From NCBI GenBank assembly GCA_022827685.1, contig JAJEIH010000024.1:1-61176 (forward strand): a stretch of DNA of 61,176 nt. The letters are read 5' to 3'. Below, one piece after another: positions 8,140 through 60,632 of this stretch; position 1 is the stretch's first letter; each line of letters opens with the position of its first letter. Source of the stretch: Alphaproteobacteria bacterium (GTDB taxonomy: Bacteria; Pseudomonadota; Alphaproteobacteria; Bin95). The notes under the pieces were generated by a model. That model worked only from the letters and a program-made list of their open reading frames with translations, did not search any database and was not told where the DNA came from. The position numbers and the translations under genes were made by a program.

Positions 8140-8203
8140 AAGGCGCTGGAGTGCGAGTGCGTATTCGTCAATCGGAGCCCCGAACACAGGGAGGACAAGC
8201 AGG

Positions 8204-13508: not shown

Positions 13509-13509
13509 G

Positions 13510-14115: not shown

Positions 14116-14308
14116 CGCTGGCGTTCTCCCTCGCTGGCGATCAAAAAGGCTTTCCGCGTCCGCATTAACGCAGCCGAAGGTTCAAACCGCCCGCTCTTCC
14201 TGCGCCGGGCCTGCCAGCCCCCGGACGCCTGGCGAGAGTGCCGGTTGTGCGGCGAAGACGGCGCTCCGCCGCACAACCGAGTGCTCTGTAACCAAGCCCG
14301 TACGCGCG

Positions 14309-15415: not shown

Positions 15416-15757
15416 TGTCTCAACTCCCGCTGTGGTTGGAACAATCCAGGGACATACGAAGCGACCATGGACAGCTGCAAAGTTTGCTCTGGATACGACC
15501 GGACGGAGTTGCAGCGCCGATTTTCCATGAAACGTCCCGTTATTCCGTTCCCCGCATGCTCGTCTTCCGGCCCAGAGGCGCGGAAACGACAGGGAGTTTG
15601 GATGCAGGGGGAGTTCGGCGCAAGCAGGAATCGAACCCCCGGATCGGCGATCTGTGAGGTGGGTGGAAGGTCGTGAGGGTCATAACCTGCAATGATCTGG
15701 CTAAAGGGCGGCGGTGTCGATGACTGGAATGCGTCCGGACGGTTCGCCCGGACCGGC
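15416..15757. other. Intergenic stretch with a tRNA-like fragment only
   Basis: This gap separates the TRAP operon from the RND operon. A segment near 15617-15640 resembles a tRNA T-arm on the minus strand (GGTTCGATTCC), but no acceptor or anticodon arm can be folded around it. No coding gene is supported. Confidence 0.4.
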
Positions 15758-22091: not shown

Positions 22092-25000
22092 ATGGTCGCG
22101 ACGGTTATCAATCTCACCTCGGCTTCCTCGACGGTGCATTATTTCCGCCGCGAGGGGCACGGGCTGGGCGCGCCGGCAAACGATGATGACGGCGACGACT
22201 ACTACGCCCGCAGCGATGACGAGCACCGCAAGGCGAGCCGGTGGCGCGGCAGCGGGGCGGCGGCGCTGGGCCTGAAGGGCCATGTGGAGCCCGGAGAGTT
22301 CCGGCGGGTGCTTCAGGGATACGTTCCCGGCACGGACATTCGTCTCGGGCGGCTGCGCGATGGCGCGCACGAGCACCGGCCCGGTATCGACATCACGCTT
22401 TCGGCGCCGAAATCCGTCTCGCTGGAGGCGCTGCTGGGCGGTGCGGGCGCGGCGCGGGCAATGCGGGCGCACGATGCAGCGGTGCGGGCGACGCTGGACT
22501 ACATCGAGGCGCGGCTTTTGCGGACCCGGCGCTGGAGCCGGGAGGAGCGGCGCTCGGTGCAGGTGAACGCGCCCATGCTTGTGGCGGCGACGTTCCGGCA
22601 TATCACCAGCCGCAACAACGACCCGCAGCTTCACACGCACTGCGTGGTCGCGAACATGACGCGCGACGGCGGGCAGTGGCGGAGCGCCGAGATCGGCCTG
22701 CTGCACCGCTCGGAGAAGCTGATCGGGGCCTTCTACCGCAACGAACTGGCGCACGGGCTAAGGAAGGCGGGCTTTGCGCTCAGGCCGTCGATGATCGGGC
22801 GCGTGCCGGGTTTCGAGATATCCGGCTGGCCACGGGCGGCGCTGGAGGCGTTTTCGAGCCGCCGGCGGCAGATCCTGGACTATATCCGCGAGAAGGGCTG
22901 GTGCTATGACGCGCGCACGGCGCAGGCGGCGACGCTCGCGACGCGGGCGCGCAAGAACGAGCCGCGCCGGGCGGAGCTTGAGGCGCTGTGGCGGGATTTC
23001 GCCGAGGAGCACGGGCTTGCCAAGCGGACGCTCCGGAAGATCGGGGTGCGCCGCCCGGAGCCGCCGACGGCGCTTGAGATCGCCTGGCGGGCGCTGGAGC
23101 AACTGGAGGAGCGGGCGAGCGTGTTCCCGGCGCGCGACGCTCTGGCGCTGGCGCTGGCTCATACGCCCGGCCTCTACCGGCTTGAGGAGATCGAGGGGGC
23201 GTTTGCCGAGCTTCAGCGCGACAAGCACCTGCTTCCGGCGATCCGTCGCGGGGTAAGCGAGGCGTGGACGACGGCGCGGGCGGCGGGCGCCGAGCGCGAG
23301 GTGCTGATGCGCATGAGGGCGGGCATGGGCGCGGTCGGGCCGCTCGCCCGGGGCCCCGTCCCCCAAGAGGTGCTGTCGGGTCTGAGCGAAGGCCAGCGCG
23401 AGGCGGTGCGTCTGGTGATGGAGAGCCGCGACCGTGCGGTGGGCGTGCAGGGCCATGCCGGCAGCGGCAAGACGGTCATGCTGCGATGCGCGGCCTCGCT
23501 GGTGGCGGGGCGGCGTGTGCTCGGGCTGGCGCCGTCGGCCTCGGCGGCGCGGACGCTCTCGCGCGAGACGGGGCTGGCCTGCCGGACGCTGCAATGGTTC
23601 CTCGCGCGCTGCCGGGAGGTAGCGGACGGGGTGGCGGACAGGGAGACGCTGGCCGCGCTGAAGGAACGCTATTCCGGCGCGGTGGTGGTGGTTGACGAGA
23701 TGTCGCTTGCGGGCACGGCGCAGGCGCGCTCGTTGCTGAGGATTGCGGAGCGCCTCGATATCGCCCGCCTCGTGCTGGTGGGCGACAGGCGGCAGTTGCG
23801 GGGCGTGGAGGCGGGCCAGCCCTTCCGGCAGATGCAGCAGGCGGGCATGGCCGTGGTCGAGATGGACGAGTTGCGCCGGCAGCGCGACCCGGACCTGAGG
23901 GCGGCGGTCGCGGAGATGATCGAGGGGGAGCCGGGCGCGGCGCTGGAGCGGCTCGGGAGCAATCTCCGGGAAGTGCCGGCGGAGGAGATCGCGGAGATGG
24001 CGGCCGGTCTCTGGCTCAGGCTGTCGGCCGACGCGCGGGCGGGGACGGCGCTGCTTGTGCCGACGCGCGCGCTCAGGGCGGAGGTCGAGGCGGCGGTGCG
24101 CGAGGGGCTGGAGGCCGAGGGCGCGCTCGGCGGACGCGCCATGGAGATCGAAACCCTGGTGCCGCTCAATCTCACCCGCGCCGAGACGGGCGACGTGCGC
24201 AACTGGCGCGAGGGCGACATCGCGCTCTTCAACCGCGACATGAAGCATTACCGCATCGCCAGGGACGACGCCTGCACGGTGGTGGAGGTGGAGGAGGACC
24301 GGGTGAGGCTCGCCCACCCCGACGCCAGGCCCCGCCACCTGAAGCCCGGCAGCGACCTGCGCTACCGGCTCGACCTGTTCGAGGCGAGGACGCTCACCGT
24401 CCGCGAGGGCGAACGGCTGCGCTGGACGCGCAACGACAAGGAGCGCGGGTTCGCCAACGGGGACCGGGTGCAGGTCCTGGAGACAGGCGCCAAGACGCTC
24501 CGCCTGCGGCTTGCCGACGGGCGGGAGACGGTCTTCGCGCGGGACGACCCGCAGCTTCGCCATCTTGCATATGCCTATGCGTCCACCGTGCATGCGGCGC
24601 AGGGGCAGACGCACGACCGGGTGATCGCGGTGCTGGACACGGGAGCCGGGCCGCTGGTGAACCGGCAGACGCTCTATGTGCAGCTCAGCCGGGCGCGGGA
24701 GCAGGCGCTGGTGCTGACCGACAACCGCGAGCAGCTGGTGGAGACGCTGGAGGCGAACACGGGCGAGCGGCTGACGGCGCTGGAGGCCATCGGCGAGGCG
24801 GAAACGGCGGTTCCGGCGAAACCCGCCATCCGTGCGGAGAGCGCCGTGGCGTTCCTGGACGGCCTGCGGGCGGAACGGGAGCGCCGGGCCGGGGCGGAGG
24901 CGGCGCTGGCGGAGGCGGAGACGGCGCTTGCGGCGGCGCGGGCCCTTGCGGAGGAGGCCGGACGCGCGTTTGCGGCGCTGCCGGCGGGCGGGCTGGCGGA

Positions 25001-26825
25001 CAGGCAGGCGCTGCGGGAGCGGATTGCGGCGGCCGAACGGCTGGGGGACGCGGAGGCCGGCGTCGCCGCCGCCGCCGGGGCGTTCGCGGAAGCGGCTGCT
25101 GCTGCCGGCCGCGCGCCCGGCGGGGACGGTATCGGGACGGCGGCGACGGGCCGGTCCGCCATGCAGGTGCGGCTCCGGGCCTGGCGTTCCCTTGACGCGG
25201 CGCTGGCGGCGGCGGATGCGGCCTGGGAGCAGCTGGCACCGGCCGGGGCGCTGTCCGACAGGGAGATCGACACGGCCTCGATAAAGCGCCACGGCGCGGC
25301 CGCCCGGGAGGCGGCGACGGCCTTCAGCGCTCTGGCCGGCAGGGCTCTCGTGGCGGGCGAGGCGGCGCTGGGGCGTGACGCCCGGGCGCGGCAGCGGGCG
25401 CTCGATCTGCAGACGCAATACTGGATCTACAGGCTGACCGGGCGCCGGATCTCCGAGGAGGTTCGGGCAGAGCGGGAGATGGCGCCGCCGCTGACCGTAG
25501 CGGACGCGCAGGCATGGCGGCGGCTGCGGGCGCAGCGAACGTCGGCGCATGGCGGCGCGTCCGCGATCGCCGAAACGATCGCGGACACCCTGGAAGCCAG
25601 ATATCCCGAAGCAGCAGCCGCATGGCGCGACCGGTCGGAGCGGCACCGGGATCGGGCCATGACGACAGGAGGCGCGCAGACGGCGTTCGACCGTCTGGAG
25701 GCGCGCATCCTGACCGCGGCGGCCGCGCCGGAGGATGCGGCGGCATGGGGTGCGGCGGCGGACGCGGCGGAGGCGCTCATGGAGGGCGCGGGCCATGCGC
25801 TCCGGGAGGAGGCGGAGGCGGCCGCCGGCAGGGCGGCGCGCCGGGAGGAGGCCGAGGCGGCCCGGGGCTGCCAGAGCATCCGCGACGCCTTCGACGAGGC
25901 CGACGCCGCCGCCGGCGGGGGCGCCCTCATCTACCGGCCCGGCATCGAGCCGCTGGGCGCCGAGGCCGCGCGGCTGCTCTCGGCGCCCCGGCTCTCCGAC
26001 GACGACCGCCGCTACCTCGAGCAGTTCCAGGCGGTGATCGAAAGCGAAATCCGTGTCCGCGACATGATGCGGGACGCGATCGGGCGGGCCCGGGCCCATC
26101 TCCAGGCATACCCCGCCATTCTCGACCGCGCCCTTGCCCCGGAACCGCCGCCGCCCGCCCCGGAGGAGCCGGCCTCCCGTCCGGGGCTCGTCGGCCGCGC
26201 CCGCCGGCTGTTCGGGGCCGAAGAGGACAGTCCCGCCCGCCCGGCGCCCGAACCCGCGCCCCGCGCCCTCAACCAGGTCGATCCGGAATACCGCAGGTGG
26301 GACGTCCGGGCGGAGCAGTTCGTCAATACCTTCCGCAACTGGCGCGCCATCGACGACCCCGCCCACCGCGACCATCTCGACCGCCGCTGGATCGACATGG
26401 CCGACCTCACGGCCGAGATCGAGGCGATCCGCCGCGCCGCCCGCGATCCGAAGGCGCAGCCCCACCGGATCGAACTCTCCGACGCCGGCGCGTTCGCCGC
26501 CGCCGACCAGCGCCACGATCCCGACCGCCTCGACATGCTGATGCGCGCCGTCGCAAGGCCCGAAGACGAGCGCGACCGCGATGCGCTGGTCGAACTCGCC
26601 CGCAGGAACCGCGCCTGGCCCGATGAGACCCGCGCCGCCTTCCGCCGCCATGTCCGCGAGGCGGTCGATCCCGACGACAGGCTCTCCCTGTTCCGGCTGG
26701 CGCAGGGCCTGCCCGCCGATCTCGCCCGGAGCTTCGAGAACCTCTCCAGGGAATGCTGGCGGCACATGGGCGAGGCCCTCGGGCGGCGCCAGCAGCTCAC
26801 AAGGGGGCACGGCCTCTCATACTGA
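22092..26825 (+). CDS. traA: MobF-family conjugative relaxase-helicase (TrwC/TraA type)
   Basis: This 1577-residue protein should nick the transfer origin, bind the 5' end and unwind the strand for mobilization. The TrwC relaxase domain (1 to about 300) has candidate nucleophile tyrosines Y17 and Y37/Y38, LSAPKSVSLEALLGG and the three-histidine metal site in DPQLHTHCVVANM. The helicase has Walker A GHAGSGKTV (about residue 455), Walker B VVVVDEMSL (about 530) and a UvrD-like end STVHAAQGQTHDRV / YVQLSRAREQALVL (about 830-880). From about residue 900 the protein is a 650-residue alanine/arginine-rich coil with no domain that I recognise. No coupling protein or secretion genes lie nearby. Codon use is very GC-rich. 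Confidence 0.93.
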   Translation: MVATVINLTSASSTVHYFRREGHGLGAPANDDDGDDYYARSDDEHRKASRWRGSGAAALGLKGHVEPGEFRRVLQGYVPGTDIRLGRLRDGAHEHRPGIDITLSAPKSVSLEALLGGAGAARAMRAHDAAVRATLDYIEARLLRTRRWSREERRSVQVNAPMLVAATFRHITSRNNDPQLHTHCVVANMTRDGGQWRSAEIGLLHRSEKLIGAFYRNELAHGLRKAGFALRPSMIGRVPGFEISGWPRAALEAFSSRRRQILDYIREKGWCYDARTAQAATLATRARKNEPRRAELEALWRDFAEEHGLAKRTLRKIGVRRPEPPTALEIAWRALEQLEERASVFPARDALALALAHTPGLYRLEEIEGAFAELQRDKHLLPAIRRGVSEAWTTARAAGAEREVLMRMRAGMGAVGPLARGPVPQEVLSGLSEGQREAVRLVMESRDRAVGVQGHAGSGKTVMLRCAASLVAGRRVLGLAPSASAARTLSRETGLACRTLQWFLARCREVADGVADRETLAALKERYSGAVVVVDEMSLAGTAQARSLLRIAERLDIARLVLVGDRRQLRGVEAGQPFRQMQQAGMAVVEMDELRRQRDPDLRAAVAEMIEGEPGAALERLGSNLREVPAEEIAEMAAGLWLRLSADARAGTALLVPTRALRAEVEAAVREGLEAEGALGGRAMEIETLVPLNLTRAETGDVRNWREGDIALFNRDMKHYRIARDDACTVVEVEEDRVRLAHPDARPRHLKPGSDLRYRLDLFEARTLTVREGERLRWTRNDKERGFANGDRVQVLETGAKTLRLRLADGRETVFARDDPQLRHLAYAYASTVHAAQGQTHDRVIAVLDTGAGPLVNRQTLYVQLSRAREQALVLTDNREQLVETLEANTGERLTALEAIGEAETAVPAKPAIRAESAVAFLDGLRAERERRAGAEAALAEAETALAAARALAEEAGRAFAALPAGGLADRQALRERIAAAERLGDAEAGVAAAAGAFAEAAAAAGRAPGGDGIGTAATGRSAMQVRLRAWRSLDAALAAADAAWEQLAPAGALSDREIDTASIKRHGAAAREAATAFSALAGRALVAGEAALGRDARARQRALDLQTQYWIYRLTGRRISEEVRAEREMAPPLTVADAQAWRRLRAQRTSAHGGASAIAETIADTLEARYPEAAAAWRDRSERHRDRAMTTGGAQTAFDRLEARILTAAAAPEDAAAWGAAADAAEALMEGAGHALREEAEAAAGRAARREEAEAARGCQSIRDAFDEADAAAGGGALIYRPGIEPLGAEAARLLSAPRLSDDDRRYLEQFQAVIESEIRVRDMMRDAIGRARAHLQAYPAILDRALAPEPPPPAPEEPASRPGLVGRARRLFGAEEDSPARPAPEPAPRALNQVDPEYRRWDVRAEQFVNTFRNWRAIDDPAHRDHLDRRWIDMADLTAEIEAIRRAARDPKAQPHRIELSDAGAFAAADQRHDPDRLDMLMRAVARPEDERDRDALVELARRNRAWPDETRAAFRRHVREAVDPDDRLSLFRLAQGLPADLARSFENLSRECWRHMGEALGRRQQLTRGHGLSY

Positions 26826-27929: not shown

Positions 27930-27954
27930 CGATAACGTCGTTATCGCTTGTCAA
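27930..27954 (-). promoter_or_regulatory. Palindromic operator inside the SPFH-gene promoter
   Basis: A perfect 17-bp palindrome, CGATAACG-T-CGTTATCG, spans 27930-27946. On the minus strand it lies directly after a consensus -35 box (TTGACA, 27954-27949) and just before a TATCTT-like -10. A repressor bound here would block the SPFH promoter and might also affect the recombinase gene that starts 35 bp away in the other direction. The regulator is not identified; no TetR- or LacI-type gene lies nearby. Confidence 0.6.
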
Positions 27955-27980
27955 GACAACCCGCCGCCGCAGGAACCGCC

Positions 27981-28985
27981 ATGCCCGAGGAAATGACCGC
28001 GAACCGCCTGGCGCCCGTGCCGCCCCTGACGGAGTGGTTCGCCGGGATCGAGAGCGGCCACAACCGCAGGGGCTATCTGCGCGATGTCGGGGAGTTCATG
28101 CGCCATGCCGGCCTCCGCGAACCGGAGGAGCTGCGGGACGCGGCGGCGGAGCAGGTGGAGGCCTGGCGCGACGAGCTGCTTGCGCGCCCGCTCAGGCCGG
28201 CGACCGTGCGCCGCAAGCTCTCGGCGCTCTCGTCTCTGTTCGACGAGCTGCTCGCCCGGGGCGCGGCGGCGGCCAACCCGGTCCGGGGCGTGGAGAGGCC
28301 GGCGGACGAGGAAGGCAGGCATGCAGCGCCGGTGCTGACCGGCGAGCAGGCGCGCCGGCTCCTCGACGCGCCGCCCGGGAACACTATCAAGGGCCTGCGC
28401 GACCGCGCTATCCTCGCCGTCATGCTCTGCCAGGGGCTGACCCGCGAGGAACTTTGCGGGCTGAGCGTGGGCGACCTGGTGCTCATGGACGGCCAGCCCC
28501 GCCTGAATGTCGCGGGCAACCGGGGCCGGATGCGCATTGCCGCGCTGCATCCCGAGGCGGAGCAGCGGATCGGAGACTATCTCGGCCGGGCGGGCCACGG
28601 ACGGGACCCCTCCGCTCCGCTCTTCCGCCCGGTAGCCAACAATCGCGGCGGCGGCAGGCTCGACCGCGCGCTCGATCCGGGCTCGGTCTACAGCAATGTG
28701 GTGCGCTACCACGCGGACCGCGCCGGTCTCACGCGCGAGGTCGAGGGGCTGTGCGCGCATTCGCTGAGGGCGACGGCGGCGGCGACCGCGCTTCGCGAGG
28801 GCGCGCGGCCCGAGGCGGTCAGGGACTGGCTCGGCCACACCGACCTCGCCGCCACCCTGCGCTACTACCGGTCTCCGGCGAGCGAGTGCATCGCCCCGGC
28901 CTTGCGCATCTCCTATCCCGGGCCTGCGCCGGACCATGAAGAGCCGCCGCCCTCGGCCGCCGCAGCACGGGCGCCCGCTGCATGA
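27981..28985 (+). CDS. Tyrosine recombinase (XerC/D-like integrase)
   Basis: The protein (334 residues) has an N-terminal SAM-like core-binding domain (about 10-100) and a C-terminal catalytic domain. Catalytic residues visible are the first arginine in QGLTREELCGL, the H-x-x-R pair in HSLRATAAAT (about residues 260-263), and LGHTDLAATLRYYR with the third histidine and the nucleophilic tyrosine near residue 296. The beta-hairpin lysine appears replaced by arginine (AGNRGRMRI). AGGAA precedes the ATG at 27981. It could integrate or resolve the element, but it is not at an obvious end and no att repeats were found. Confidence 0.88.
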   Translation: MPEEMTANRLAPVPPLTEWFAGIESGHNRRGYLRDVGEFMRHAGLREPEELRDAAAEQVEAWRDELLARPLRPATVRRKLSALSSLFDELLARGAAAANPVRGVERPADEEGRHAAPVLTGEQARRLLDAPPGNTIKGLRDRAILAVMLCQGLTREELCGLSVGDLVLMDGQPRLNVAGNRGRMRIAALHPEAEQRIGDYLGRAGHGRDPSAPLFRPVANNRGGGRLDRALDPGSVYSNVVRYHADRAGLTREVEGLCAHSLRATAAATALREGARPEAVRDWLGHTDLAATLRYYRSPASECIAPALRISYPGPAPDHEEPPPSAAAARAPAA

Positions 28986-30334: not shown

Positions 30335-30591
30335 GGGCCTCCTTGTCCGGCGACAGGCGTGGCGCTCCAGCAGTCGGCGCCGCAGCCGCCGGAGCCCGGT
30401 CCAGTGTGGCGAGTGGCCAACGCATGTGCAGCGCAAGCTCACGGCAGGTCGAATCGGACACGGAGGACAGGTGATGCCGGGCGGCAAGGCCGGTCGCCTG
30501 TTCCCCACGTTCGAGAACCGTGCCTTGACGCAACTCTGAACAGCTTCCATCGTGACCCGGACAGGGGGGCCTTTCAGGAGCATGTGAACCC

Positions 30592-31386
30592 GTGACCGGA
30601 TTCGAGCAGGCATTCGACGACGCGGAACAGGCTGCCGAGGCGGCGCGAAGGGCAGCGGCACGCCTGGTTTCCACCGCAAATGCGGTGAAAAAAGCAGCTC
30701 AGACGGGCAATATTGCGGCGATGCGGCGAGAGCAGGGCAAGCTTGGCGAAGCGCTGGACGCGTTGCGGGAAGAGGTCGGACGCGCCGCCGCCTGCTGGCC
30801 CTTTTCGGAGGCGGAAGAGGCGGGCTATCTGAAGGAAGGATATGGCCCGGAATTGCTGGAGGCGGCCGCCGGGAAGGGCCTGAGCATTTACGAGCGCGAC
30901 GGACAGCTCATATCCCCGCCGTCCATCCTTCGGATCCTGCCGGACAGCCGCTCCGTCCAGCTGGACAGGAAACGTATCCCTACCATCCGTCCAAGCTGGC
31001 TTGCGGATTTGCTGCTGCGCAACCGGGGCAAATCCAGCGGGTTCACTCCGCAACGGTTTCTGGAGGCGCTCTACTCCGTGTACGCGGACATAACCGGCCC
31101 GTCGGCACTGCTGTCCAAACAGGGCGACGGCGTCGTGCCCCTCGCCCGCATATACCGGCTCATGACCGCCTTGCCAGGCGTCGGCCGCGACTACGACCGG
31201 ATGGATTTCGGCAGGGACCTCTACATGCTGGATTCAGGAGGGCCGCGCAGAACAAGGAAGGGCGCGGAAGTGTCCTTTTCATCATCCGGAGGTAAGTATC
31301 GCCCGCGCGACCTGTTCTATTTCGTCGACCCGGCCGGCGTCAGCATCGACTATTACGGGATCCGCTTCAGGGACGTCGGCGAATGA
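30592..31386 (+). CDS. Defence-cassette protein of unknown fold (gene A)
   Basis: This 264-residue protein (GTG start, AGGAG eleven bases upstream) has an N-terminal alpha-helical coil (about 1-70, alanine-rich). A mixed domain follows, containing GLSIYERDGQLISPPSILRI, RKRIPTIRPSWLADLLL and TPQRFLEALYSVYADITGP. The C-terminus reads YFVDPAGVSIDYYGIRFRDV. I recognise no named domain. It is the first gene of a tight operon with two BrxC/BrxD-like genes and an SNF2 helicase, and its stop overlaps the next start (ATGA). By position it could be a target-recognition or scaffold subunit; that is inference. Confidence 0.7.
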   Translation: MTGFEQAFDDAEQAAEAARRAAARLVSTANAVKKAAQTGNIAAMRREQGKLGEALDALREEVGRAAACWPFSEAEEAGYLKEGYGPELLEAAAGKGLSIYERDGQLISPPSILRILPDSRSVQLDRKRIPTIRPSWLADLLLRNRGKSSGFTPQRFLEALYSVYADITGPSALLSKQGDGVVPLARIYRLMTALPGVGRDYDRMDFGRDLYMLDSGGPRRTRKGAEVSFSSSGGKYRPRDLFYFVDPAGVSIDYYGIRFRDVGE

Positions 31387-32348
31387 ACAACAGGATTCCG
31401 CTTGAAGACTGGCTTGCTGTCATCGACCGGGAATATCTGTCCACCTTCATCGGCAACGGTGGCGCGGCCGTCAAGTTCGCTGTTGCGGACGATGACCGCA
31501 GGGCGGGGCTGCGCGAAGCATTGAAGTCGCATGGCGAATCGCACGGATACCTGTTCGTGGGCCTGGATGCGGCGACAAGCCGGGCTTATATGCCGCAAGA
31601 CCTGTTTTTCGGCGTTGCACGCCAGGTTGATTGGCGGTTGCTGGCCCGCCGCGTGATCCTGGGCTATCTGGCCGAAGAAGGCTTCGCCATCGAGGGCATC
31701 GAAGCGCAGGACCCGGACGCGGTGGAGACGGCTATCGCCAGGAATGCCTCCGGGCGGGATTATGCGGGCGGTGTGCTGAGGCCGTACCTTGAAAACCGGA
31801 TTTTCAGGAACGCCGACCTCGCCAAAGCTTTTCGCATCGCCATGCTGCATCTCTGCCGTTTCGAGCTCCAGCAAGCAGCCGGGACCGACGGGTACGCCGG
31901 CCAGGCGCTGCTGGATTGGCTGACCGGAGAGGACAGCAGGATCGGACAATTGCGCGACTTCCAGATCCGGACCCGGATCGACCGCACGACAGCGCGGTAT
32001 TTTCTGGAGTCCGCCTGTCACTGGATGAGGCAGGCCGGTCATGCCGGCACGATCGTCTATCTGGACAATGACCGGGTGACCGTGGGACGAAATCCGCGGG
32101 ACGGACTGAGATACTATACCAGGGCGATGACGCTGGACCATTACGAGGTTCTGCGGGAGTTCATAGACGGCACGGACCGGTTGGCCGGCGTGTTGCTGGT
32201 AGTAGCAACCGGTTACGAGTTCCTGAACGACGATCCCGTCAGAGGCCGGGGCTGGGGCATCTACTCCGCCCTGCGCACGAGGATCATGGACGATGTCCGT
32301 GACAGGAATGTGGTCAATCCCGTTTCGTCTCTGGTCAGAATATCCTGA
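31383..32348 (+). CDS. BrxC/BrxD-like protein without a clear Walker A motif (gene B)
   Basis: The 321-residue sequence resembles the DUF2791 (BREX BrxC/BrxD) ATP-binding family. Matching blocks are FIGNGGAAVKFAVADDD, YMPQDLFFGVARQVDWRLLA, DRTTARYFLESACHWMRQAG, TIVYLDNDRVTVGRNPRDG and LREFIDGTDRLAGVLLVVAT. A normal GxxxxGKS loop is absent and only GNGGAAVKF stands in its place. It is therefore probably a degenerate ATPase pairing with the intact one encoded next. The start overlaps the stop of gene A, and gene C begins 21 bases downstream. Confidence 0.72.
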   Translation: MNNRIPLEDWLAVIDREYLSTFIGNGGAAVKFAVADDDRRAGLREALKSHGESHGYLFVGLDAATSRAYMPQDLFFGVARQVDWRLLARRVILGYLAEEGFAIEGIEAQDPDAVETAIARNASGRDYAGGVLRPYLENRIFRNADLAKAFRIAMLHLCRFELQQAAGTDGYAGQALLDWLTGEDSRIGQLRDFQIRTRIDRTTARYFLESACHWMRQAGHAGTIVYLDNDRVTVGRNPRDGLRYYTRAMTLDHYEVLREFIDGTDRLAGVLLVVATGYEFLNDDPVRGRGWGIYSALRTRIMDDVRDRNVVNPVSSLVRIS

Positions 32349-32368
32349 ACGAGGAGCCAGCCTCTGCC

Positions 32369-33646
32369 ATGACCGTGCCATCGGACAAGGCGGCAAACGT
32401 CGCTGCCAGACGCGCGATAGAGGCGCTCCGGAGCGGCGTGCCCAACCGGGATGCGGTGCGGGAGCTCGGGAGCAGCCAGCCGGATGCCGAACAGCAATTT
32501 TCCCGAATGCTGGAGGGAGCCGCCGACTTCGCGCGGCCCTTGCCCGTTGCCCGCGGAATGCTGATTTCAGGAGACTTCGGCGCCGGAAAATCTCATCTTC
32601 TGGCTCACTTGGAGCAGATGGCGCTTTCGAAGAACTTCGTTACGAGCCGGGTGGTGATAAGCAAGGAAACGCCGCTCTACGACTTGGGAAAGGTCTACTC
32701 TTCCGCTGTTGACAGCGCCAGGATTCCGGACCGGAACGGGCGCTTCATCGAAGAACTGTCGCTCGCCCTGAAGCCCGGGACTGAAAATTACGACCTGTTT
32801 TCCGGAGCCATTGCCAGCGCCGCGCTGGACGGCCAGTTGAGCATGATGTTTCCTGCAACCCGTATCGTGCACGAGCGGTCGCACGATCAGGAAATCCTGA
32901 ATGAAATCGAGTCGTTCTGGGCCGGAGACAGAATCGCGGTTGCAACCGTAAGGAGAGGCTTGCGATCGATCGGCGAGGCGCACAACTACCGCTTTTCAGC
33001 GCCGCGGGCTGCGGAACTCCCGCTGCAGCGGCTGCGGTTCGCCGCCGAACTCATCCGGGGGACAGGATACAAGGGATGGGTCGTGTTCATGGACGAGATC
33101 GAGCTGATCGGCAACTACTCGATATTGCAGCGGGCCAGGTCCTATGCCGAACTCGCGCGCTGGACGGGATGCGCCTCGGGGGACGGCTATCCCGGCCTGA
33201 TTGCCGTCGGGGCGGTCACGGACGATTATTCGTCGACGGTTATCGGAGCGGACGGGAAGCAGGACAGGGACAGGATCGGCCCCCGGTTGCAGCAAAGCGC
33301 GCGCTACGGGGGTCTGGTCGAAGCCGCCGAGGCCGGCATGACTACACTGGAGCGGGATGTAATCGAACTGAAGCCGGTCAGGGACGCTGACGTGGCTGCG
33401 GTGCTGGAGAAATTGCGCGGCGTTTACGAAAGGGCCTACGACTGGCAACCGTCCCCGGCCTCAAGGACTTCAGAAAGCGCGGGACACCGAAACCAGATTC
33501 GTTACAAGGTCCGGGCGGCGATCAACGAATGGGATTTGCTGAGGCTGCGTCCCGGCTATCGACCGGACATCGAGACCGAGGAGTTCCGGCACAGCTACGA
33601 AGAGGATGCGCAGCTCGAAAGGCCGGCCGCGGACGATGCGGAATAG
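32369..33646 (+). CDS. BrxC/BrxD-like P-loop ATPase (gene C)
   Basis: This 425-residue ATPase has Walker A GDFGAGKSHLL near residue 68 and Walker B GWVVFMDEIEL near residue 235. The family blocks ARRAIEALRSGVPNRDAV, SRVVISKETPLYDLGKVY and RARSYAELARW are present, matching the DUF2791 BREX ATPases that act in phage exclusion. It likely works with gene B as a hetero-oligomer on DNA or membranes. No PglZ, PglX methylase or BrxL gene accompanies it, so this is not a standard BREX locus. The SNF2 helicase follows 30 bases later. Confidence 0.82.
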   Translation: MTVPSDKAANVAARRAIEALRSGVPNRDAVRELGSSQPDAEQQFSRMLEGAADFARPLPVARGMLISGDFGAGKSHLLAHLEQMALSKNFVTSRVVISKETPLYDLGKVYSSAVDSARIPDRNGRFIEELSLALKPGTENYDLFSGAIASAALDGQLSMMFPATRIVHERSHDQEILNEIESFWAGDRIAVATVRRGLRSIGEAHNYRFSAPRAAELPLQRLRFAAELIRGTGYKGWVVFMDEIELIGNYSILQRARSYAELARWTGCASGDGYPGLIAVGAVTDDYSSTVIGADGKQDRDRIGPRLQQSARYGGLVEAAEAGMTTLERDVIELKPVRDADVAAVLEKLRGVYERAYDWQPSPASRTSESAGHRNQIRYKVRAAINEWDLLRLRPGYRPDIETEEFRHSYEEDAQLERPAADDAE

Positions 33647-33676
33647 AGGCTGACAGTAACCGGGCGGGACTCCGGA

Positions 33677-35641
33677 ATGGCAGGTGGGTCGAATGCGGCC
33701 TGTGCCCGGGCGGACGTCGTGGCCTGGCTGCGGATCGTGAAGAGAAGCAGTTCCAAAGGGGATCGCCTGGCGCTGCTGGAGACCTCACCGGAAGGAAAGC
33801 CTCTCGGCTTCGGATTTGCACGCGCCCGGCGGGCGGCAGTCGCAAGAGTAGCCGGGGCGCTGCTCGAGGCGGCCGGACATACGCCGTCCCTGGTCGTGGC
33901 ATTGGCCGGCGAGTTGGCGCCTTACGAACTGGAAGATGCCCCGCAACTGTCTGTGCCGCTCTGCCTTGTAGGCCCGGAGGGCGGGAAGTCCGGTTACAGT
34001 TTGCGCTGGACGGGGGAACCGCCCGAACCTGATTCTCCTGCCGGCCGGGCCTTGTCGGTGCTGATAGCCCAGCACAGGCCGTTCGAGCCTCTGGAGCGGG
34101 CGGCCACGGGACTGAACGTGGCCTTCGCCGATGCGCGGGTGCGGCAGGCGGCGTGCATTGCCGGGCTCGACCTGTTGCTTTCCTTGCCGGTGGAAGCCTC
34201 CGGGCCGGCAGACGACGCCGGGACGGCCCTGGACGAGCGACTGCGCTCCGTGCTGGCCGTGCCGCGCGAGCCTGCAGTCGCCAAGCCGGACCTCAAATTG
34301 AAGTGGGCGGGCGAACTGATGCCCTTCCAGCAGGATGGTGTGCGGGCGCTGTTGGAGATGGACCGGCTTCTGCTGGCGGACGACATGGGGCTTGGCAAGA
34401 CCGTACAGACCGTCGCCGCGTTGCGGATCCTGGCGGCGCGGGGCGAAGCGGGCCCCAGCCTCGTGGTTGCGCCGGCAAGCCTGCTCGACCAATGGCGGCG
34501 GGAACTGGCCAAGTGGGCGCCGGAGCTTTCCGCCATCGTGGTGCGCGGACCAGCGGACGACCGGACATGGCAATGGCAGGCCGACAAGGATGTCGTTCTG
34601 TCGAGCTACGAGACACTGCGCGCCGACGCCGGCCGTCTGTCAGCGTTGCGACCTCCGGGAGAGCACTGGAGCTCCGTCGTGGCCGACGAGGCGCAACGGA
34701 TCAAGAACCGCAACGATACCAGTCGGGCTATCAAGCGTCTTGCGAGAATGCGGTCCTGGGCGCTCACCGGAACGCCGATCGAGAACCGCGAGGACGAACT
34801 GGCCTCCATCATGGAATTCGTGGACCATGATGGCGGGGAGCGACCCCTCCAATACCGTCCCGGTCCCGCATTGCTCCGGCGCCACCGGGAATTGCAGCTT
34901 CGCCGCCGCAAGGGCGATGTGCTGGCCGACCTGCCGCCGAAGCTCGAGTCCCGCCTGACATTGGCGCTCCGCCCCGAACAACAGAGGAGTTACGACCGGG
35001 CGGAACAGGAAGGCATCGTTTATCTCAGGTCGCTGGGCGCCAGCGTCACCGTTCGCCATATCCTCGAATTGATCACCCGCCTGAAGCAGATATGCAACTT
35101 CGACCCGCAGACGGGCGTGTCCGCCAAAATGGACGACATCGAGGAGAAACTGCGGGAAGTCTCGTCTCGCGGGCACAAGGCGCTGATTTTCTCGCAATAC
35201 GCCAACGAAATATCGGGAGTGAAAGCGGCAGCGCTCCGGTTGAAGGAGTTCGATCCGCTCGTGCTGACAGGCGAAGTGCCGGTCGAGGCGCGTCCTCGCC
35301 TTGTGGAACGGTTCAGGACCTCGGATCGGCACAGGGTCATGGTCGTGTCGCTTCGCGCGGGCGGGGTCGGCCTCAATCTTCAGGAGGCCTCTTATGTGTT
35401 CCATCTGGATCGCTGGTGGAACCCCGCGGTCGAACGGCAGGCAGAGGACCGAGCACACCGTATCGGCCAGACGGTCAAGCTCAATGTCGTCAAGTACATC
35501 TGCGCCGACACCATCGAGGAGCGCATAGATGGGATCCTCATCGGCAAGCAAGAGTTGTTCGACCGCATCGTGGACGATGTCTCGCTTGACCTGTCGAAGC
35601 AGCTGACGCGCCGCCAACTTCTCGCCCTGTTCGGACTGTAG
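33677..35641 (+). CDS. SNF2-family DNA helicase/translocase (gene D)
   Basis: The 654-residue protein has a roughly 205-residue N-terminal domain that I do not recognise. A complete SWI2/SNF2 motor follows: motif I ADDMGLGKTVQT, motif II VVADEAQRIKN (DEAQ box), motif III ALTGTPIENRED, motif V LRAGGVGLNLQEASYVFHLD and motif VI RWWNPAVERQAEDRAHRIGQ. Such motors translocate on double-stranded DNA and remodel protein-DNA complexes; related helicases occur in DISARM and BREX-like defence. It ends the four-gene operon. No nuclease domain is visible in it or its neighbours. Confidence 0.9.
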   Translation: MAGGSNAACARADVVAWLRIVKRSSSKGDRLALLETSPEGKPLGFGFARARRAAVARVAGALLEAAGHTPSLVVALAGELAPYELEDAPQLSVPLCLVGPEGGKSGYSLRWTGEPPEPDSPAGRALSVLIAQHRPFEPLERAATGLNVAFADARVRQAACIAGLDLLLSLPVEASGPADDAGTALDERLRSVLAVPREPAVAKPDLKLKWAGELMPFQQDGVRALLEMDRLLLADDMGLGKTVQTVAALRILAARGEAGPSLVVAPASLLDQWRRELAKWAPELSAIVVRGPADDRTWQWQADKDVVLSSYETLRADAGRLSALRPPGEHWSSVVADEAQRIKNRNDTSRAIKRLARMRSWALTGTPIENREDELASIMEFVDHDGGERPLQYRPGPALLRRHRELQLRRRKGDVLADLPPKLESRLTLALRPEQQRSYDRAEQEGIVYLRSLGASVTVRHILELITRLKQICNFDPQTGVSAKMDDIEEKLREVSSRGHKALIFSQYANEISGVKAAALRLKEFDPLVLTGEVPVEARPRLVERFRTSDRHRVMVVSLRAGGVGLNLQEASYVFHLDRWWNPAVERQAEDRAHRIGQTVKLNVVKYICADTIEERIDGILIGKQELFDRIVDDVSLDLSKQLTRRQLLALFGL

Positions 35642-36097: not shown

Positions 36098-36541
36098 TCA
36101 GAGCAGCTCGCCCTGCGGGGCGGGCTCCGGGCCGCCATTGCCGTTCCCGGCCTTCTCCGGTTCCGCCAGGGCCGTGGCGACCCGCTTCGCCGTCCCTTCG
36201 CCCATTGCGGGCGCGAGAACCGCGCACAGCTCCGCCGTCCGGCCCGAAGCGGCAAGCTCGACCGCCCAGGCCGCGAACAGCACCGCAAGCCGTTCCCGCA
36301 TCCCGGACCGCGACAGGCCGCCGCCGCTTCCTCCCGACAGCAGCGGCCGCAGACGGCGCACCGCCTCCAGCAGGCCCCGCTCGCCCTCGATCGCCCGGCC
36401 CTCCGCCAGCGCCGCATCCACGAGATAGCGCGAGACTGACTGCTCCTGCTTCCGCGCCCGCTCCGCGACCTGCGCCCATTCCTCGTCCGTCGCCGAAATC
36501 GAAAGCCGCGCAAGCGCCGAACCGGGCGGCGGGCCGCTCAT
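36098..36541 (-). CDS. Ribbon-helix-helix (MobC/CopG-like) DNA-binding protein 1
   Basis: This 147-residue protein opens with a beta strand and two helices typical of RHH or MobC accessory proteins: RLSISATDEEWAQVAERARKQEQ then SVSRYLVDAAL. A helical C-terminal part ends in a Gly/Pro-rich tail. MobC-type proteins assist relaxases at the transfer origin or act as repressors. Its start overlaps the stop of the upstream RHH gene (ATGA), so both come from one transcript. That transcript begins near the palindrome array at 36.9-37.2 kb, the natural candidate for their binding site. Confidence 0.65.
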   Translation of the reverse strand: MSGPPPGSALARLSISATDEEWAQVAERARKQEQSVSRYLVDAALAEGRAIEGERGLLEAVRRLRPLLSGGSGGGLSRSGMRERLAVLFAAWAVELAASGRTAELCAVLAPAMGEGTAKRVATALAEPEKAGNGNGGPEPAPQGELL

Positions 36542-36822
36542 GGTCCTTCCTCCCCGGCCGCCCTCTCTTCACTGGCGCCGTCGTCGGCCGCCGCATCACG
36601 AACAAGGCCGGCGAGACCGATCAGCCGGCGGACGCCTGCATGCAGTTCCGCCCGTTCCGCCGCCGTCAAGCCGGCAGCCGTTCCCCCGGCCACGCCATCC
36701 GCCAGCCCCCGCTCCAGCACGAAGGAGGAAACCGTCATCCCGGCCGCCGCCGCCCGCGCCCCGATCGCGTCGCGCTCCTCCGGGCTGCAGTACACGCTGC
36801 GCGGGCGCTTGTTGCCCGTCAT
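36538..36822 (-). CDS. Ribbon-helix-helix (MobC-like) DNA-binding protein 2
   Basis: From the ATG at 36822 the product has 94 residues. KRPRSVYCSPEERDAIGARA gives the DNA-binding strand and first helix, and AGMTVSSFVLERGL gives the second. The arrangement is that of MobC/RHH plasmid proteins. A third paralogue (KRPRSVMATDSEWRLV) is encoded at 42573-42890. The array of seven palindromes begins about 80 bases upstream of this start, so autoregulation or a relaxosome/partition role is plausible. Up to twelve further codons are open upstream. Confidence 0.65.
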   Translation of the reverse strand: MTGNKRPRSVYCSPEERDAIGARAAAAGMTVSSFVLERGLADGVAGGTAAGLTAAERAELHAGVRRLIGLAGLVRDAAADDGASEERAAGEEGP

Positions 36823-36903
36823 GGCCGCCCTCCCCCGACGCCCGGCATGCCGCAATCCGCCGGGTCCGCAGGCAGGTCAGGACCGGCGCATCCCTGCGGC
36901 GCC

Positions 36904-37466: not shown

Positions 37467-37594
37467 CCGTTCCCGGCGAACGGCGGAGCCTGCCTGTCCG
37501 GCCGAAAGGTCGGGAAAGGGTTGTCGGGGCGATGTCCGCGGGGCGCCCGTCCGACCGGCTCCCGCGCCCGTTCCGCCAGCAGGAGACGTCGCCC
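37467..37594 (+). promoter_or_regulatory. Shared hairpin leader, copy A (before zinc-ribbon gene)
   Basis: The segment AAAGGTCGGGAAAGGGTTGT (37505-37524), followed by TCGGGGCGAT and an AGGAGAC ribosome site, recurs before the genes at 41241 and 41763. The 3' arm CGGGAAAGG (37511-37519) can pair with CCGTTCCCG (37467-37475) with one mismatch. Copies A and B are alike for nearly 95 bases, up to the start codon. Confidence 0.6.
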
Positions 37595-38890
37595 ATGCCG
37601 GCTTCCGCCCCCCGTCCTACGCATCTGCCTGCCGAAGAGGCGGGCTGCCGTTGCTGCGGCGCCGGCGCTTCCACGGAGGCGGCGCCCGCCCGGCGGTCCA
37701 ACGCCTCGCGCGCCCGGGACCGGCTTGCCGCGCTCGGACTCTGTCTGAACTGCGGCCGCGTTCAACCGCCCGACGGGGCGAAATACTGCCCGGAATGCAA
37801 GGAGCGCCGCCGCGCCAGCGATCGGAAGGCGGCCCGCAAACGCCGCCTGCTGCGAAGCAACCGGGGCCTCTGCCAGGAATGCGGCGCCACCCCCGAAAAG
37901 CCCCGCCGGCGGCTCTGCGAGGCCTGCAACGAAAAACATCTCGCGCTCAGCCGCCGGCGCCTGCAAGAGCGCAAGGAAGAACGGCAAAAGGCCGGCCTCT
38001 GCGTACAGTGCGGGAACAGGGCGCCGGCCGAAGGCAATGCGTGCTGCGACGACTGCCTCGCCGCGCGCCGGCGGACCTACCGCGCCCGGATCGACCGCCG
38101 CCGCCGGCAGGCCGACCGCTCGCTCTGCATCGAGTGCGGCAGGGCCCCTCCTGCACCCGACAGCCGGCGCTGTCCGGCTTGCCAGCCGCTTCCCGCCAAA
38201 CGGGACAAGGAGGCCGCCAGACGCCGCCGGGACGCCCGCAAGGCCGTCGGTCTGTGCATCGTCTGCGGACGGCATGCCGCCGCGCGCGGCCGCCTGGCCT
38301 GCAAAACCTGTCTGGCCGCCGAGCTGGACCGGTACAATCAGAGGGCCCTCGCCCGGGTCTCCCAAGGGCTTTGCATCCGCTGCGGCAAGACCGCCCCCGC
38401 CGAGGGGTCGACCGCATGTGCGCCCTGTCGGGACGAGCGCCGCGTTGCCGAACGCGCGAGATGGCATCGCAGGGTCGCCGACGCCCAAGCGCGGGGCGTT
38501 TGTGTCCACTGCACAAAACGGCCTCCCGACCCCGGGTCCGTTTCCTGCGCGGACTGCCGCGAGGCGCGCCTCGCCACTCATCGCCGCCGCTACCATACGG
38601 TGACCCGCGAGCGCCAGTCTGCCGGTCTTTGTCCGCGCTGTGGCATCCGCCCCCCGGAGCCGTTCATGCGGGAATGCGGCCCCTGCCGCGACCGGCAGCG
38701 CTCCTACAGCTATCGCGGCATGCCCGACCTGCCGACGCAATACACCGTGATCGAAATCGCCGACGGCACCGATCACGGTACCTGGCAGACGCCAATGGAG
38801 GTCGCCGCCGCGCTCGCCTTTGCCAGGCTCTCGCTCGACGATGTCGAAATCCTGACCGACGCCGGCCCGGCCGTATTCGCCGGCCGCTGA
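37595..38890 (+). CDS. Protein with eight tandem zinc-ribbon repeats
   Basis: This 431-residue protein contains eight near-identical modules, each GLCxxCG followed by about ten residues and CxxC. First cysteines lie at C50, C93, C136, C178, C221, C260, C303 and C346. The period is 43 residues except for single steps of 42 and 39. Between modules run strongly basic helices (for example RRRASDRKAARKRRLLR). A degenerate CRCC lies at 18-21 and a small acidic C-terminal domain at about 375-431. Four-cysteine modules joined by basic helices suggest nucleic-acid binding. AGGAGA nine bases before the ATG at 37595 sets the start. I know no named family with this layout. The gene shares its leader with ssb. 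A group II intron abuts its stop codon. Confidence 0.75.
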   Translation: MPASAPRPTHLPAEEAGCRCCGAGASTEAAPARRSNASRARDRLAALGLCLNCGRVQPPDGAKYCPECKERRRASDRKAARKRRLLRSNRGLCQECGATPEKPRRRLCEACNEKHLALSRRRLQERKEERQKAGLCVQCGNRAPAEGNACCDDCLAARRRTYRARIDRRRRQADRSLCIECGRAPPAPDSRRCPACQPLPAKRDKEAARRRRDARKAVGLCIVCGRHAAARGRLACKTCLAAELDRYNQRALARVSQGLCIRCGKTAPAEGSTACAPCRDERRVAERARWHRRVADAQARGVCVHCTKRPPDPGSVSCADCREARLATHRRRYHTVTRERQSAGLCPRCGIRPPEPFMRECGPCRDRQRSYSYRGMPDLPTQYTVIEIADGTDHGTWQTPMEVAAALAFARLSLDDVEILTDAGPAVFAGR

Positions 38891-40990
38891 GTAGGGTCGG
38901 GCCGGAGCGCCTTGGCGGCCTTGCGGCCGCCGGGTTTCTCCGGCCCGCCCTCCGAACCGGACATGCACCTTTCGTTATGCATCCGGCTCTCCAAAGGCTT
39001 TGGCGAAGTCAGGAGCCTTCATCCATTTGAGCTCAAAACGCTGGACCTGAACATAGGCCATGCGGTGTTGCTCAGCGCTGCCCTCGGCCCAGACCCGGGT
39101 GCCGGGGTGAACCCGGCTGGTCCGACGCCATATTGCGGTCAGCTTCCTCTTGGGGACACGCTTGTGCTTGCTCCGCAACCACAACCAGAGCCGGTAGTCC
39201 ACATACCAGTCCAGTGCGGACAGGATACGTTTGGCCCCGATACAGTAGCGGAAGTAGCCAGCCCATCCCCGGAGGATTGGATTGATTTCCCGGAGCATGC
39301 TTTCGAGCGACCGGACTTGCGTCTGCCGCCTGAGCATCTTCTTGATCCGCCGGCGGAAATCGTTGACCACCTCCTTCGGGATCTCGACCCGACACCCATA
39401 GCCAAACCGGTCATCCCATTTGAGACGAACCCGGCAGCCCAGGAACCGGACGCCTTCCGTCAGTCTGGTGATCCGCGTCTTCTGTTCCGACAGCGTCAGC
39501 CCCATCTCCTCGCGCAGCCACTCGGCGAGTGCTTGCCTCTCGGCAAACGCATCGCCGTATGCGCCCGACACGAATATCAGGAAGTCGTCGGCATACCGGA
39601 CCGGGTAGAAGACCGGTCGCCCGGCCCTCCTGTCCCGCGTGCGCCGGGCCTCGCCCCTTCTCGCTCCGTCTGTTCGGAGCTTGGGATCATGCGGGTGCCT
39701 GACCCATTGCCAATACCGTTCCTCGATCGCGCTCAGCGCGATGTTGGCCAGTAGCGGCGACAGGACGCCCCCTTGAGGCGTGCCGGTGGCCGTCGGACTG
39801 TAGATGAAGTCCTCCAGCACCCCGGCCTTGAGGAACCGCACAATCAGCCGGTTCACCTTCCGGTCCGCGCAGGATTTCCGCACGCGGTCCATCAAATGAT
39901 GGTGGCCGATGTTGTCAAAGCAGCCCTCGATGTCGCCCTCGATCACCCATTGATAGGGAGGATCGCGAAGCATTCCATCCGCCCCGCGTCTGCTGGGGCG
40001 AATGGTCCGCCGGATATGTTCGAGTGCGCCGTGGCAGCCCCGTCCGGGCCGGAACCCGTATGAGACCTGCCAGAAACGCGCCTCGAAGATCGGCTCCAGG
40101 ATATTCTTGACCGCGCATTGAACGACGCGATCAGCGACGGTGGGGATACCGAGGGGTCGGAACTTCCCCGGTCTGCCCGGTTTCGGAATCCACTTTCGCC
40201 TCGCGGGCGACGGGCGGTAGCTGCTGTTTCGCAGCGCCTCCCGCAGCCCGTCCAGGAAGAGCGATACGCCTCCGTCACCGGCGGCGATTTTCGCCACCGT
40301 CAACCCGTCGATGCCCGGCGTCCGTCTGCCCTTGTTATGGGCAATCGTATGCCATGCGCAGCGAAGGTTTCGTGGGTCGGTGACCCAATTCCACACATCG
40401 CCATAGGCGCCTTCGGGCGTCTCCTTACTCCACTGGTACAACTTCCGCTGCACGCCGAGGAGCCAAGCCCTGTCGGCCTGATTGTCCGAGTCCACGGACA
40501 GTTCCTCCGTCATGGAAGCCGTTCCACCTTCTGCCCCCCTTCGCCCTGTATGCGGCTTTCCCGCACTCCGACTACTACGAGGGCTCCGCCCCCATGCGGC
40601 CCGTCTCCGTTCTCCGCGGCTAGCCCGGCTCCGTACCGGGCGGACAGCATGGGTTCCCGTGTTCCGATGACAAACCTCAGACCCTTAGGCGGCATGCTTT
40701 ACCCCTTGCGGCTCGGGGGCACGGGTTAGAAGGGTTGACCCGTGCCCGAGAGCGCTAGGCGCTCTCGCCAGTCGGTAGAAGGGAAACCGACCGGATCGGT
40801 CCGCAGTCCCCTCCGCCCCGTCGGGCCATAGAGGGTTGGGGAATAAATGAAGAGGCTTCTGACGCATGCTTCGTACGTCCTCGCCATAGGTCCTGTGGTA
40901 GCCCGGCCCGCGAGCGACGGCTCGCGCCCGGTACAGTTCAGATCGCAGCTTTCTCGCCCCGCCGCCGGAAAACGGCAGAACTTCGCGACC
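38891..40990 (-). mobile_element. Group II intron with its maturase gene
   Basis: On the minus strand the intron ends just after the maturase gene. A domain V-like hairpin (GAGCCGGATGCAT ... TGCATGTCCGGTTC) is followed by a domain VI-like stem (GGGCCGGAG ... CTCCGGCCC) and an end GACCCTAC. That puts the 3' boundary at about 38891, directly next to the stop codon of the zinc-ribbon gene on the other strand. The 5' boundary is not certain; it lies near 40990, just inside a perfect 9-bp hairpin at 40996-41020 that may have been the insertion target. The intron is about 2.1 kb. Confidence 0.75.
38975..40513 (-). CDS. ltrA: Group II intron reverse transcriptase/maturase
   Basis: The 512-residue protein copies intron RNA into DNA and helps it fold. 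The reverse-transcriptase blocks run in order: KWIPKPGRPGKFRPLGIPTV, WVIEGDIEGCFDNIGHHHL, TPQGGVLSPLLANI and the catalytic VRYADDFLIFV. These are followed by the maturase (X) domain (NPILRGWAGYFRYC). No HNH endonuclease motif is visible at the C-terminus, so insertion probably uses replication-fork primers. The ORF is full length for the family and appears intact. The upstream bases (domain IV) carry the usual GGTGGAACG leader. Confidence 0.93.
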   Translation of the reverse strand: MTEELSVDSDNQADRAWLLGVQRKLYQWSKETPEGAYGDVWNWVTDPRNLRCAWHTIAHNKGRRTPGIDGLTVAKIAAGDGGVSLFLDGLREALRNSSYRPSPARRKWIPKPGRPGKFRPLGIPTVADRVVQCAVKNILEPIFEARFWQVSYGFRPGRGCHGALEHIRRTIRPSRRGADGMLRDPPYQWVIEGDIEGCFDNIGHHHLMDRVRKSCADRKVNRLIVRFLKAGVLEDFIYSPTATGTPQGGVLSPLLANIALSAIEERYWQWVRHPHDPKLRTDGARRGEARRTRDRRAGRPVFYPVRYADDFLIFVSGAYGDAFAERQALAEWLREEMGLTLSEQKTRITRLTEGVRFLGCRVRLKWDDRFGYGCRVEIPKEVVNDFRRRIKKMLRRQTQVRSLESMLREINPILRGWAGYFRYCIGAKRILSALDWYVDYRLWLWLRSKHKRVPKRKLTAIWRRTSRVHPGTRVWAEGSAEQHRMAYVQVQRFELKWMKAPDFAKAFGEPDA

Positions 40991-40995
40991 CCCTT

Positions 40996-41020
40996 CCTCC
41001 CGGCACCCTTCGCCGGGAGG
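40996..41020. terminator. Perfect 9-bp hairpin next to the intron 5' end
   Basis: CCTCCCGGC and GCCGGGAGG pair perfectly around a 7-base loop. There is no T-tract, so termination is uncertain. Some bacterial group II introns insert after terminator-type hairpins, and the intron begins just beside this one. Confidence 0.45.
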
Positions 41021-41118
41021 GGCGGCATTTCAGCCGCCGGTCGATCATCGGCGCGACCAAGTGTCTGGATTACTTCACGTTTTCCTCCTCTTGGTCTTCA
41101 CGGCGCACCCCTTCGTTT

Positions 41119-50966: not shown

Positions 50967-51124
50967 GCCCGCCTGACACGGCATCCGGTCCTGTTGGATC
51001 GCGACGAAGGACGTGCAGGGATTGTCGTCCCGGCCCCGAGCGGGAACAGACGGCGTCCGGGGCGACGGGAAAGCCGTGGAGCCCGGCGCCCCGGCCCTCT
51101 TCCCGTCATGCCCGTCCCCATATC

Positions 51125-60519: not shown

Positions 60520-60632
60520 TGGAGGAGCGCGAGCCTCCTCGCCCGGTCCGCCGCGCGCGCCTGTAATACCAGCGGTCGTCGATCGGAACCGATGGCGGAT
60601 TCGACGCCCGCCGCCCCGATCGCCCCCCTTCC

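What the first reader, a model, noticed from the sequence alone, without database searches (positions are those of the whole stretch)
30592..35641. Four-gene BrxC/BrxD-like plus SNF2 cassette: candidate new defence system
Seen: a tight operon (two ATGA-type or short junctions) of an unknown 264-aa protein, a BrxC/BrxD-like protein lacking a clear Walker A, an intact BrxC/BrxD-like ATPase (GDFGAGKS) and a complete SNF2 motor. Known: DUF2791 ATPases belong to BREX loci and SNF2 helicases to DISARM and similar systems. Related TerB-linked ATPase/helicase operons have been proposed as DNA-processing systems. Inferred: without PglZ, PglX, BrxL or a methylase this is a distinct minimal module carried on a mobile element, perhaps against phages or rival plasmids. 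A paired active/inactive ATPase is a notable design.
Basis: partly seen in the sequence, partly recalled or inferred. Interest (0 to 1): 0.88.

Follow-up and report, generated by a model that had tools for sequence, protein, structure and literature searches.

The report
Mobile ATPase–pseudoATPase–SNF2 operon, probable defence
Symbiotic bacteria of marine sponges carry a movable set of four genes that pairs a working DNA-handling ATPase with a dead copy of itself and a DNA-pulling motor; it sits where other species keep antiviral genes and is probably an undescribed variant of known virus-defence machines.

Summary
The same four genes, same order, occur in at least three further divergent loci in related Alphaproteobacteria (MAGs; sponge-derived where traceable), with unrelated flanks, a shared upstream leader and purifying selection on every gene. 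B is therefore a maintained pseudo-ATPase, and A was never seen outside the cassette. One locus is a mosaic: A's tail, B, C and D's N-terminal domain were exchanged as a block, while A and the motor stayed put. Two loci lie downstream of dut, a variable site that holds a PARIS-like pair in the window's own genome. The genome has no PglZ and no TerB_N, so this is neither BREX nor Shango. Plasmids of Aulosira and Desulfomonile carry the same layout, but with two live ATPases and a Ski2/Lhr-type helicase; common descent is suggestive only. Best reading: a new variant of the BrxD-type-ATPase-plus-helicase defence operon, in which an ATPase/pseudo-ATPase pair loads or gates a nuclease-free SNF2 translocase on invader DNA. 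Antiviral function is inferred, untested.

The parts
30525..30553 (+). Candidate promoter TTGACG-17 nt-CATCGT in an upstream leader related to that of the other cassettes (TTGACg/c-17-CATGyT)
   Evidence: position; alignment of four leaders. The generic sigma-70 scan did not call it.
30592..31386 (+). Gene A, 264 aa, no Pfam/NCBIfam match; N-terminal long helices predicted at low confidence; C-terminal part possibly winged-helix-like (inference)
   Evidence: (pLDDT 45)
31383..32348 (+). Gene B, 321 aa, BrxC/BrxD-like pseudo-ATPase without the C-terminal helical bundle
31482..31508 (+). Degenerate Walker A position in B (VADDDRRAG), degenerate in all homologues
32046..32069 (+). Degenerate Walker B of B (GTIVYLDN; E replaced by N in all homologues)
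32280..32282 (+). R300 of B, invariant, aligned with the arginine of SngB/BrxD 'ALQSRL': candidate trans arginine finger (inference)
32369..33646 (+). Gene C, 425 aa, BrxC/BrxD-like (ORC/Cdc6-type) ATPase
32570..32593 (+). Walker A of C, GDFGAGKS
33077..33097 (+). Walker B of C, WVVFMDE
33677..35641 (+). Gene D, 654 aa, SNF2-family DNA translocase without a nuclease domain
33677..34276 (+). N-terminal domain of D (about residues 1-200): fastest evolving part of the cassette, exchanged together with B and C in L014
34313..35581 (+). SNF2 core of D (DDMGLGKT, DEAQ, LTGTP, QAEDRAHRIGQ all intact)

Best explanation
A self-contained mobile anti-invader operon. C is an ORC/Cdc6-type AAA+ ATPase of the BrxC/BrxD family; B is a maintained catalytically dead paralogue that most likely forms a mixed ring or dimer with C, lending an arginine finger or a fixed docking face while C alone hydrolyses ATP. 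The pair, with A as DNA-binding or sensing adaptor, loads or gates the SNF2 motor D on invading DNA (phage, plasmid or conjugating element). D then translocates on the DNA to block or strip the machinery working on it; with no nuclease or methylase in the operon, destruction, if any, is left to host nucleases. Shown: gene content, intact and dead motifs, conservation as a unit, mobility, purifying selection, block exchange of B-C-D(NTD), defence-type surroundings at the dut site. Inferred: complex formation, helicase loading, target, antiviral outcome.
For: Four-gene unit in at least four independent locations, identical order, unrelated flanks; L012/L013 homology is limited to 7894-13042. A found only in the cassette. 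dN/dS 0.07-0.24 for all four genes, B included. B dead at Walker A and B in all homologues yet keeping R300; C intact. L014/L012 mosaic: dS 0.30 in A1-240, 1.4 to saturated from A241 to D200, 0.28-0.34 in D201-end, so B, C and D's NTD travel as a co-adapted set. Two cassettes downstream of dut, where the window's own genome has an AAA_15 + AriB-like (PARIS-like) pair and another species a DNA methylase. Same layout next to BREX-2 genes in Aulosira and near AbiE genes on a Desulfomonile plasmid. Published: BrxD and BrxHI are a tightly linked dyad and BrxD is proposed to load or activate the helicase (PMC12839542). Sponge symbionts are enriched in defence genes (PMC5649159).
Against: No phage or plasmid challenge exists. 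SNF2 proteins also serve repair and transcription. The window copy lies among mobility genes, so it could serve the element. AlphaFold models of A and B were poor (pLDDT 45 and 48) and show no fold. Homology of A to the first genes of the Aulosira/Desulfomonile cassettes is only suggestive (hhalign P about 0.01). The dut-site genes are known from few MAG contigs.
Confidence: 0.5

Rival explanations
1. A housekeeping or fitness module of mobile elements: the ATPase pair and SNF2 motor help replication, transfer or maintenance of the carrier element.
For: The window copy lies between a TrwC-type relaxase/tyrosine recombinase and NikA-like genes, and a near-identical copy sits on the same element in another species.
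Against: L012, L013 and L014 copies have no relaxase or integrase recognised in the flanks looked at; two follow coaBC-dut.
Confidence: 0.17
2. A DNA-repair or transcription-conflict remodeler, RapA- or Rad54-like, with ATPases as loaders, not aimed at invaders.
For: D's best solved-structure relative is an SNF2/Rad54-family helicase (1z63); no nuclease in the operon.
Against: Patchy presence within one small order (4 of 14 genomes), mobility, block exchange between alleles and defence-type neighbours are unusual for housekeeping repair.
Confidence: 0.15
3. A degenerate or derived Shango or BREX type 2 locus (orphan BrxD plus helicase).
For: B and C match PF10923, BrxD and (C) SngB profiles.
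Against: Helicase is SNF2, not Lhr/Ski2-like; two ATPases; no TerB_N and no PglZ in the genome; B and C fall outside the SngB clade (100%) and outside BrxD in the tree, though deep order is unresolved.
Confidence: 0.08
4. Anti-plasmid or anti-conjugation exclusion rather than phage defence.
For: Carriage of one copy on an element with relaxase genes; the motor could act on incoming DNA (inference).
Against: No direct evidence; chromosomal copies at a site with phage-defence-like genes.
Confidence: 0.1

Closest known systems
Shango (SngABC: TerB-like, ATPase, helicase)
   Same: Compact operon: accessory protein, BrxC/BrxD-family ATPase, helicase; validated against phages (PMC10250203).
   Different: Shango has TerB, one active ATPase and a Lhr-like DEAD helicase. 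Here no TerB, two ATPase paralogues (one dead) and a SNF2 motor.
BrxD-BrxHI dyad of BREX type 2
   Same: ORC/Cdc6-type ATPase next to a helicase; loader hypothesis (PMC12839542).
   Different: No PglZ in the genome, no PglX or PglW in the operon; helicase from a different SF2 family; ATPase duplicated and one copy dead.
Unnamed four-gene layout on Aulosira laxa AP018310 (18893-24287) and Desulfomonile tiedjei pDESTI.01 (10215-15641)
   Same: About 279-aa unknown, PF10923 ATPase, PF10923 ATPase, helicase, same order; the B profile scores better on their ATPase1 (1.5e-10 and 1.2e-7) than on the SngB/BrxD proteins tested.
   Different: Both ATPases intact; helicase is DEAD (BrxHI/SngC-like), not SNF2; homology of the first gene unproven.
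Zorya ZorD, Dpd DpdE, DISARM DrmD SNF2 proteins
   Same: The SNF2 core of D matches these profiles.
   Different: D is 654 aa without their long extra domains; none of the partner genes is present in the operon.

Membership tests
Shango | TerB-domain protein (SngA) | tested here: not met
   A matches no Pfam family; no TerB_N in the whole genome.
Shango | SngB-type ATPase | tested here: not met
   C matches the SngB profile only in part (6e-10); B and C lie outside the fully supported SngB clade.
Shango | DEAD/DEAH Lhr-like helicase (SngC) | tested here: not met
   D is SNF2 and SngC is not among the 25 listed PADLOC matches.
BREX type 2 | PglZ | tested here: not met
   PF08665 absent from the genome.
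BREX type 2 | BrxD equivalog | tested here: not met
   NF033438 31 and 51 bits against a cutoff of 350.
BREX type 2 | PglX methylase and PglW beside the ATPase/helicase | tested here: not met
   The operon has only A-D and no methylase; neighbours examined were mobility genes and an intron. Not searched genome-wide.
BrxC/BrxD (PF10923) ATPase superfamily | Pfam match above gathering score | tested here: met
   B 39.5 and C 73.4 bits, cutoff 22.2.
BrxC/BrxD (PF10923) ATPase superfamily | Intact Walker A and Walker B | tested here: inconclusive
   Met for C; not met for B in any homologue.
SNF2 family | SNF2_N plus Helicase_C with intact motifs | tested here: met
Zorya / DISARM / Dpd | Partner genes (ZorABC, DrmAB, Dpd set) | tested here: not met
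   A-C match none of them; equivalog cutoffs for ZorD, DrmD and DpdE not reached by D.
Anti-phage defence system | Protection in a challenge assay | not testable with these tools
   -

The most novel reading that the evidence does not exclude
A distinct kind of defence complex in which an obligate ATPase/pseudo-ATPase pair of ORC/Cdc6 type loads a nuclease-free SNF2 translocase on invader DNA, and in which the set B-C-D(N-terminal domain) is a swappable recognition or partner module exchanged between alleles, with a wider family across Cyanobacteriota, Thermodesulfobacteriota and Alphaproteobacteria using Lhr-type helicases instead.
Probability: 0.3. Interest if true: 0.78.

Novelty: new variant of a known kind. 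Interest (0 to 1): 0.62.

Why it matters
BrxD-type ATPases occur in BREX and Shango but their job is unknown; loading of the partner helicase is only proposed. A natural version that splits active and dead copies into two genes, next to a motor of another family, makes the loader hypothesis directly testable (does dead B supply an arginine finger to C; does B-C recruit D through its variable N-terminal domain). No description of this four-gene combination was found in the papers searched.

Tried and rejected
AlphaFold of A and B: pLDDT 45 and 48, Foldseek hits all E>0.2, disregarded. tblastn of A, B, C in plasmids and of B in phages: nothing. IMG/VR scans with A, B, C and with Aulosira/Desulfomonile profiles: nothing. 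A in 385 class and 398 phylum genomes: nothing convincing outside the genus. B as pseudogene: rejected (open and conserved in all full copies, dN/dS 0.10-0.20). High divergence in L014 as positive selection: rejected, because dS jumps with it, so it is an exchange. tRNA-Arg (52844) as attachment site of the window element: no matching repeat. Homology of A to the 306-aa protein of L037: not supported. Tree of PF10923 proteins: B and C outside SngB and BrxD, deeper placement unresolved, long branches.

Full report
Observation. Four + strand ORFs at 30592-31386, 31383-32348, 32369-33646 and 33677-35641 form one operon. A has no Pfam or NCBIfam match; B and C belong to PF10923 (BrxC_BrxD); D is an SNF2 protein with all motor motifs. 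No nuclease, methylase, PglZ or TerB is in the operon. PglZ (PF08665) and TerB_N (PF13208) are absent from the whole genome, which is estimated 99% complete (completeness).

A real unit. Homologues of A were found only in members of one GTDB genus of Alphaproteobacteria and in one MAG of unstated kinship (L013). Where the source could be traced the MAGs come from sponges: MPMT is bin52 of Aplysina aerophoba (PMC5649159), and the string jk18 occurs in an Ircinia symbiont paper (PMC9531527). Every complete copy lies in the same A-B-C-D order. L012 and L013 share 5.15 kb at 87% DNA identity (7894-13042) and nothing in their flanks; window and L012 share 30593 to about 35597. All four genes are under purifying selection (dN/dS 0.07-0.24). 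A leader with TTGACg-17-CATnnT is shared by all four copies. In one order of 14 genomes, 4 have the cassette: patchy, mobile-type distribution.

The dead/live pair. In an alignment with SngB, BrxD and others C has GDFGAGKS and WVVFMDE. B has VADDD-RRAGL in place of the P-loop and LDN in place of LDE, in all homologues, but keeps an invariant arginine (R300) at the position of the arginine in 'ALQSRL' of SngB/BrxD; the literature places the arginine finger of BrxD at the base of strand 5 (PMC12839542), and equating the two is my inference. The corresponding arginine of C is lost in L014 (PRL to PWL). B stops shortly after this point and lacks the helical bundle. This complementarity suggests a hetero-oligomer in which B completes C's site; that step is inference.

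Block exchange. L014 against L012: A residues 1-240 are 85-100% identical, D from residue 201 is 82-100%, but the tail of A, all of B, all of C and D 1-200 are 30-72%. Synonymous divergence moves with it: dS 0.30, then 1.4 to saturated, then 0.28-0.34. So a contiguous block was replaced by recombination. D's first 200 residues also diverge fastest between all other pairs (dN/dS mostly 0.24-0.72 against 0.04-0.17 in the motor). B, C and D's N-terminal domain look like one co-adapted set.

Surroundings. The window copy lies between a TrwC relaxase gene (22092-26825) with a tyrosine recombinase (27948-28985), and two NikA-like genes on the - strand (36098-36855); a 97%-identical element segment is in another species, G004. 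L012 and L014 copies instead lie downstream of coaBC-dut (gene names from sequence, my assignment), preceded by partial copies of the dut 3' end (L012 7894; L014 3004 and 3095), as does L013 at 7893 although no dut was seen there; five shuffles of the 61-kb window gave no match at that threshold. At the same dut site the window's own genome carries an AAA_15 ATPase plus a protein matching AriAB (PARIS-like), G004 an N6/N4 DNA methylase, G007 a DUF2806 gene. That is a variable site of defence type.

Distant relatives. Searching outwards through an alphaproteobacterial locus with two adjacent PF10923 genes (L037) led to Aulosira laxa plasmid AP018310 and Desulfomonile tiedjei pDESTI.01: a 279-aa unknown, ATPase1, ATPase2, DEAD helicase, in this order, 38-49% identical to each other for the first three proteins. 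In Aulosira it directly follows PglX-PglZ-BrxD-BrxHI genes. The window B profile scores better on Aulosira and Desulfomonile ATPase1 (1.5e-10, 1.2e-7) than on the SngB or BrxD proteins tested (3e-6 to 5e-3). The first genes may be related (same-position 64-column match, P 0.01, ranked above all unrelated proteins in the 80-protein background set; the reverse comparison is weaker, second best): suggestive only. The Shango loci sampled have TerB_N, one ATPase and a Lhr-like helicase.

Mechanism. BrxD is regarded as an ORC/Cdc6-type ATPase that may load or activate its helicase partner (PMC12839542). By analogy B-C load or gate D on invading DNA, A acting as sensor or adaptor. With no nuclease, translocation itself or host nucleases would do the damage. 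I give 0.5 to the overall reading; that it is an anti-invader system of some kind about 0.6.

Verdict. Neither Shango nor BREX by test, but it works on the same plan: a new variant of a known kind.

Noticed in passing
L102:2219-5567 (contig C71 of the window's genome), L104, L105, L012:6638-7926, L014:1983-3127: The 3' end of dut looks like an integration hotspot in this genus: partial dut-tail copies follow it and the DNA beyond differs by species (PARIS-like pair, DNA methylase with transposase-like gene, DUF2806, this cassette).
   Followed up: partly
window 38892-41109: A group II intron with reverse transcriptase/maturase (38975-40513, - strand) is missing from the otherwise collinear element in species G004 (L006), so it is a recent insertion or loss.
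   Followed up: partly
L037:8601-14699: Another alphaproteobacterial operon: UvrD-like helicase, 306-aa unknown, two adjacent intact PF10923 ATPases (the second with a weak N-terminal tudor-like stretch) and a short, apparently broken DEAD helicase.
   Followed up: partly
L076:10215-15641 and L071:1894-7288: Unnamed four-gene cassette (unknown, ATPase, ATPase, BrxHI/SngC-like helicase) on a Desulfomonile and an Aulosira plasmid; candidate defence system in its own right.
   Followed up: partly
L064:5614-10407 and 11827-15095: Deinococcus psychrotolerans plasmid: two BrxD-type ATPase/Lhr-like helicase pairs in series, each after a different unknown protein, the two helicases sharing one protein accession.
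   Followed up: no
window 37532-38890: 452-aa + strand ORF with many repeated cysteine-pair (zinc-ribbon-like) units, no convincing family match.
   Followed up: no
window 51124-51400 and 60632-60850: Two stretches about 9.5 kb apart share exact repeats of 22 bases or more.
   Followed up: no
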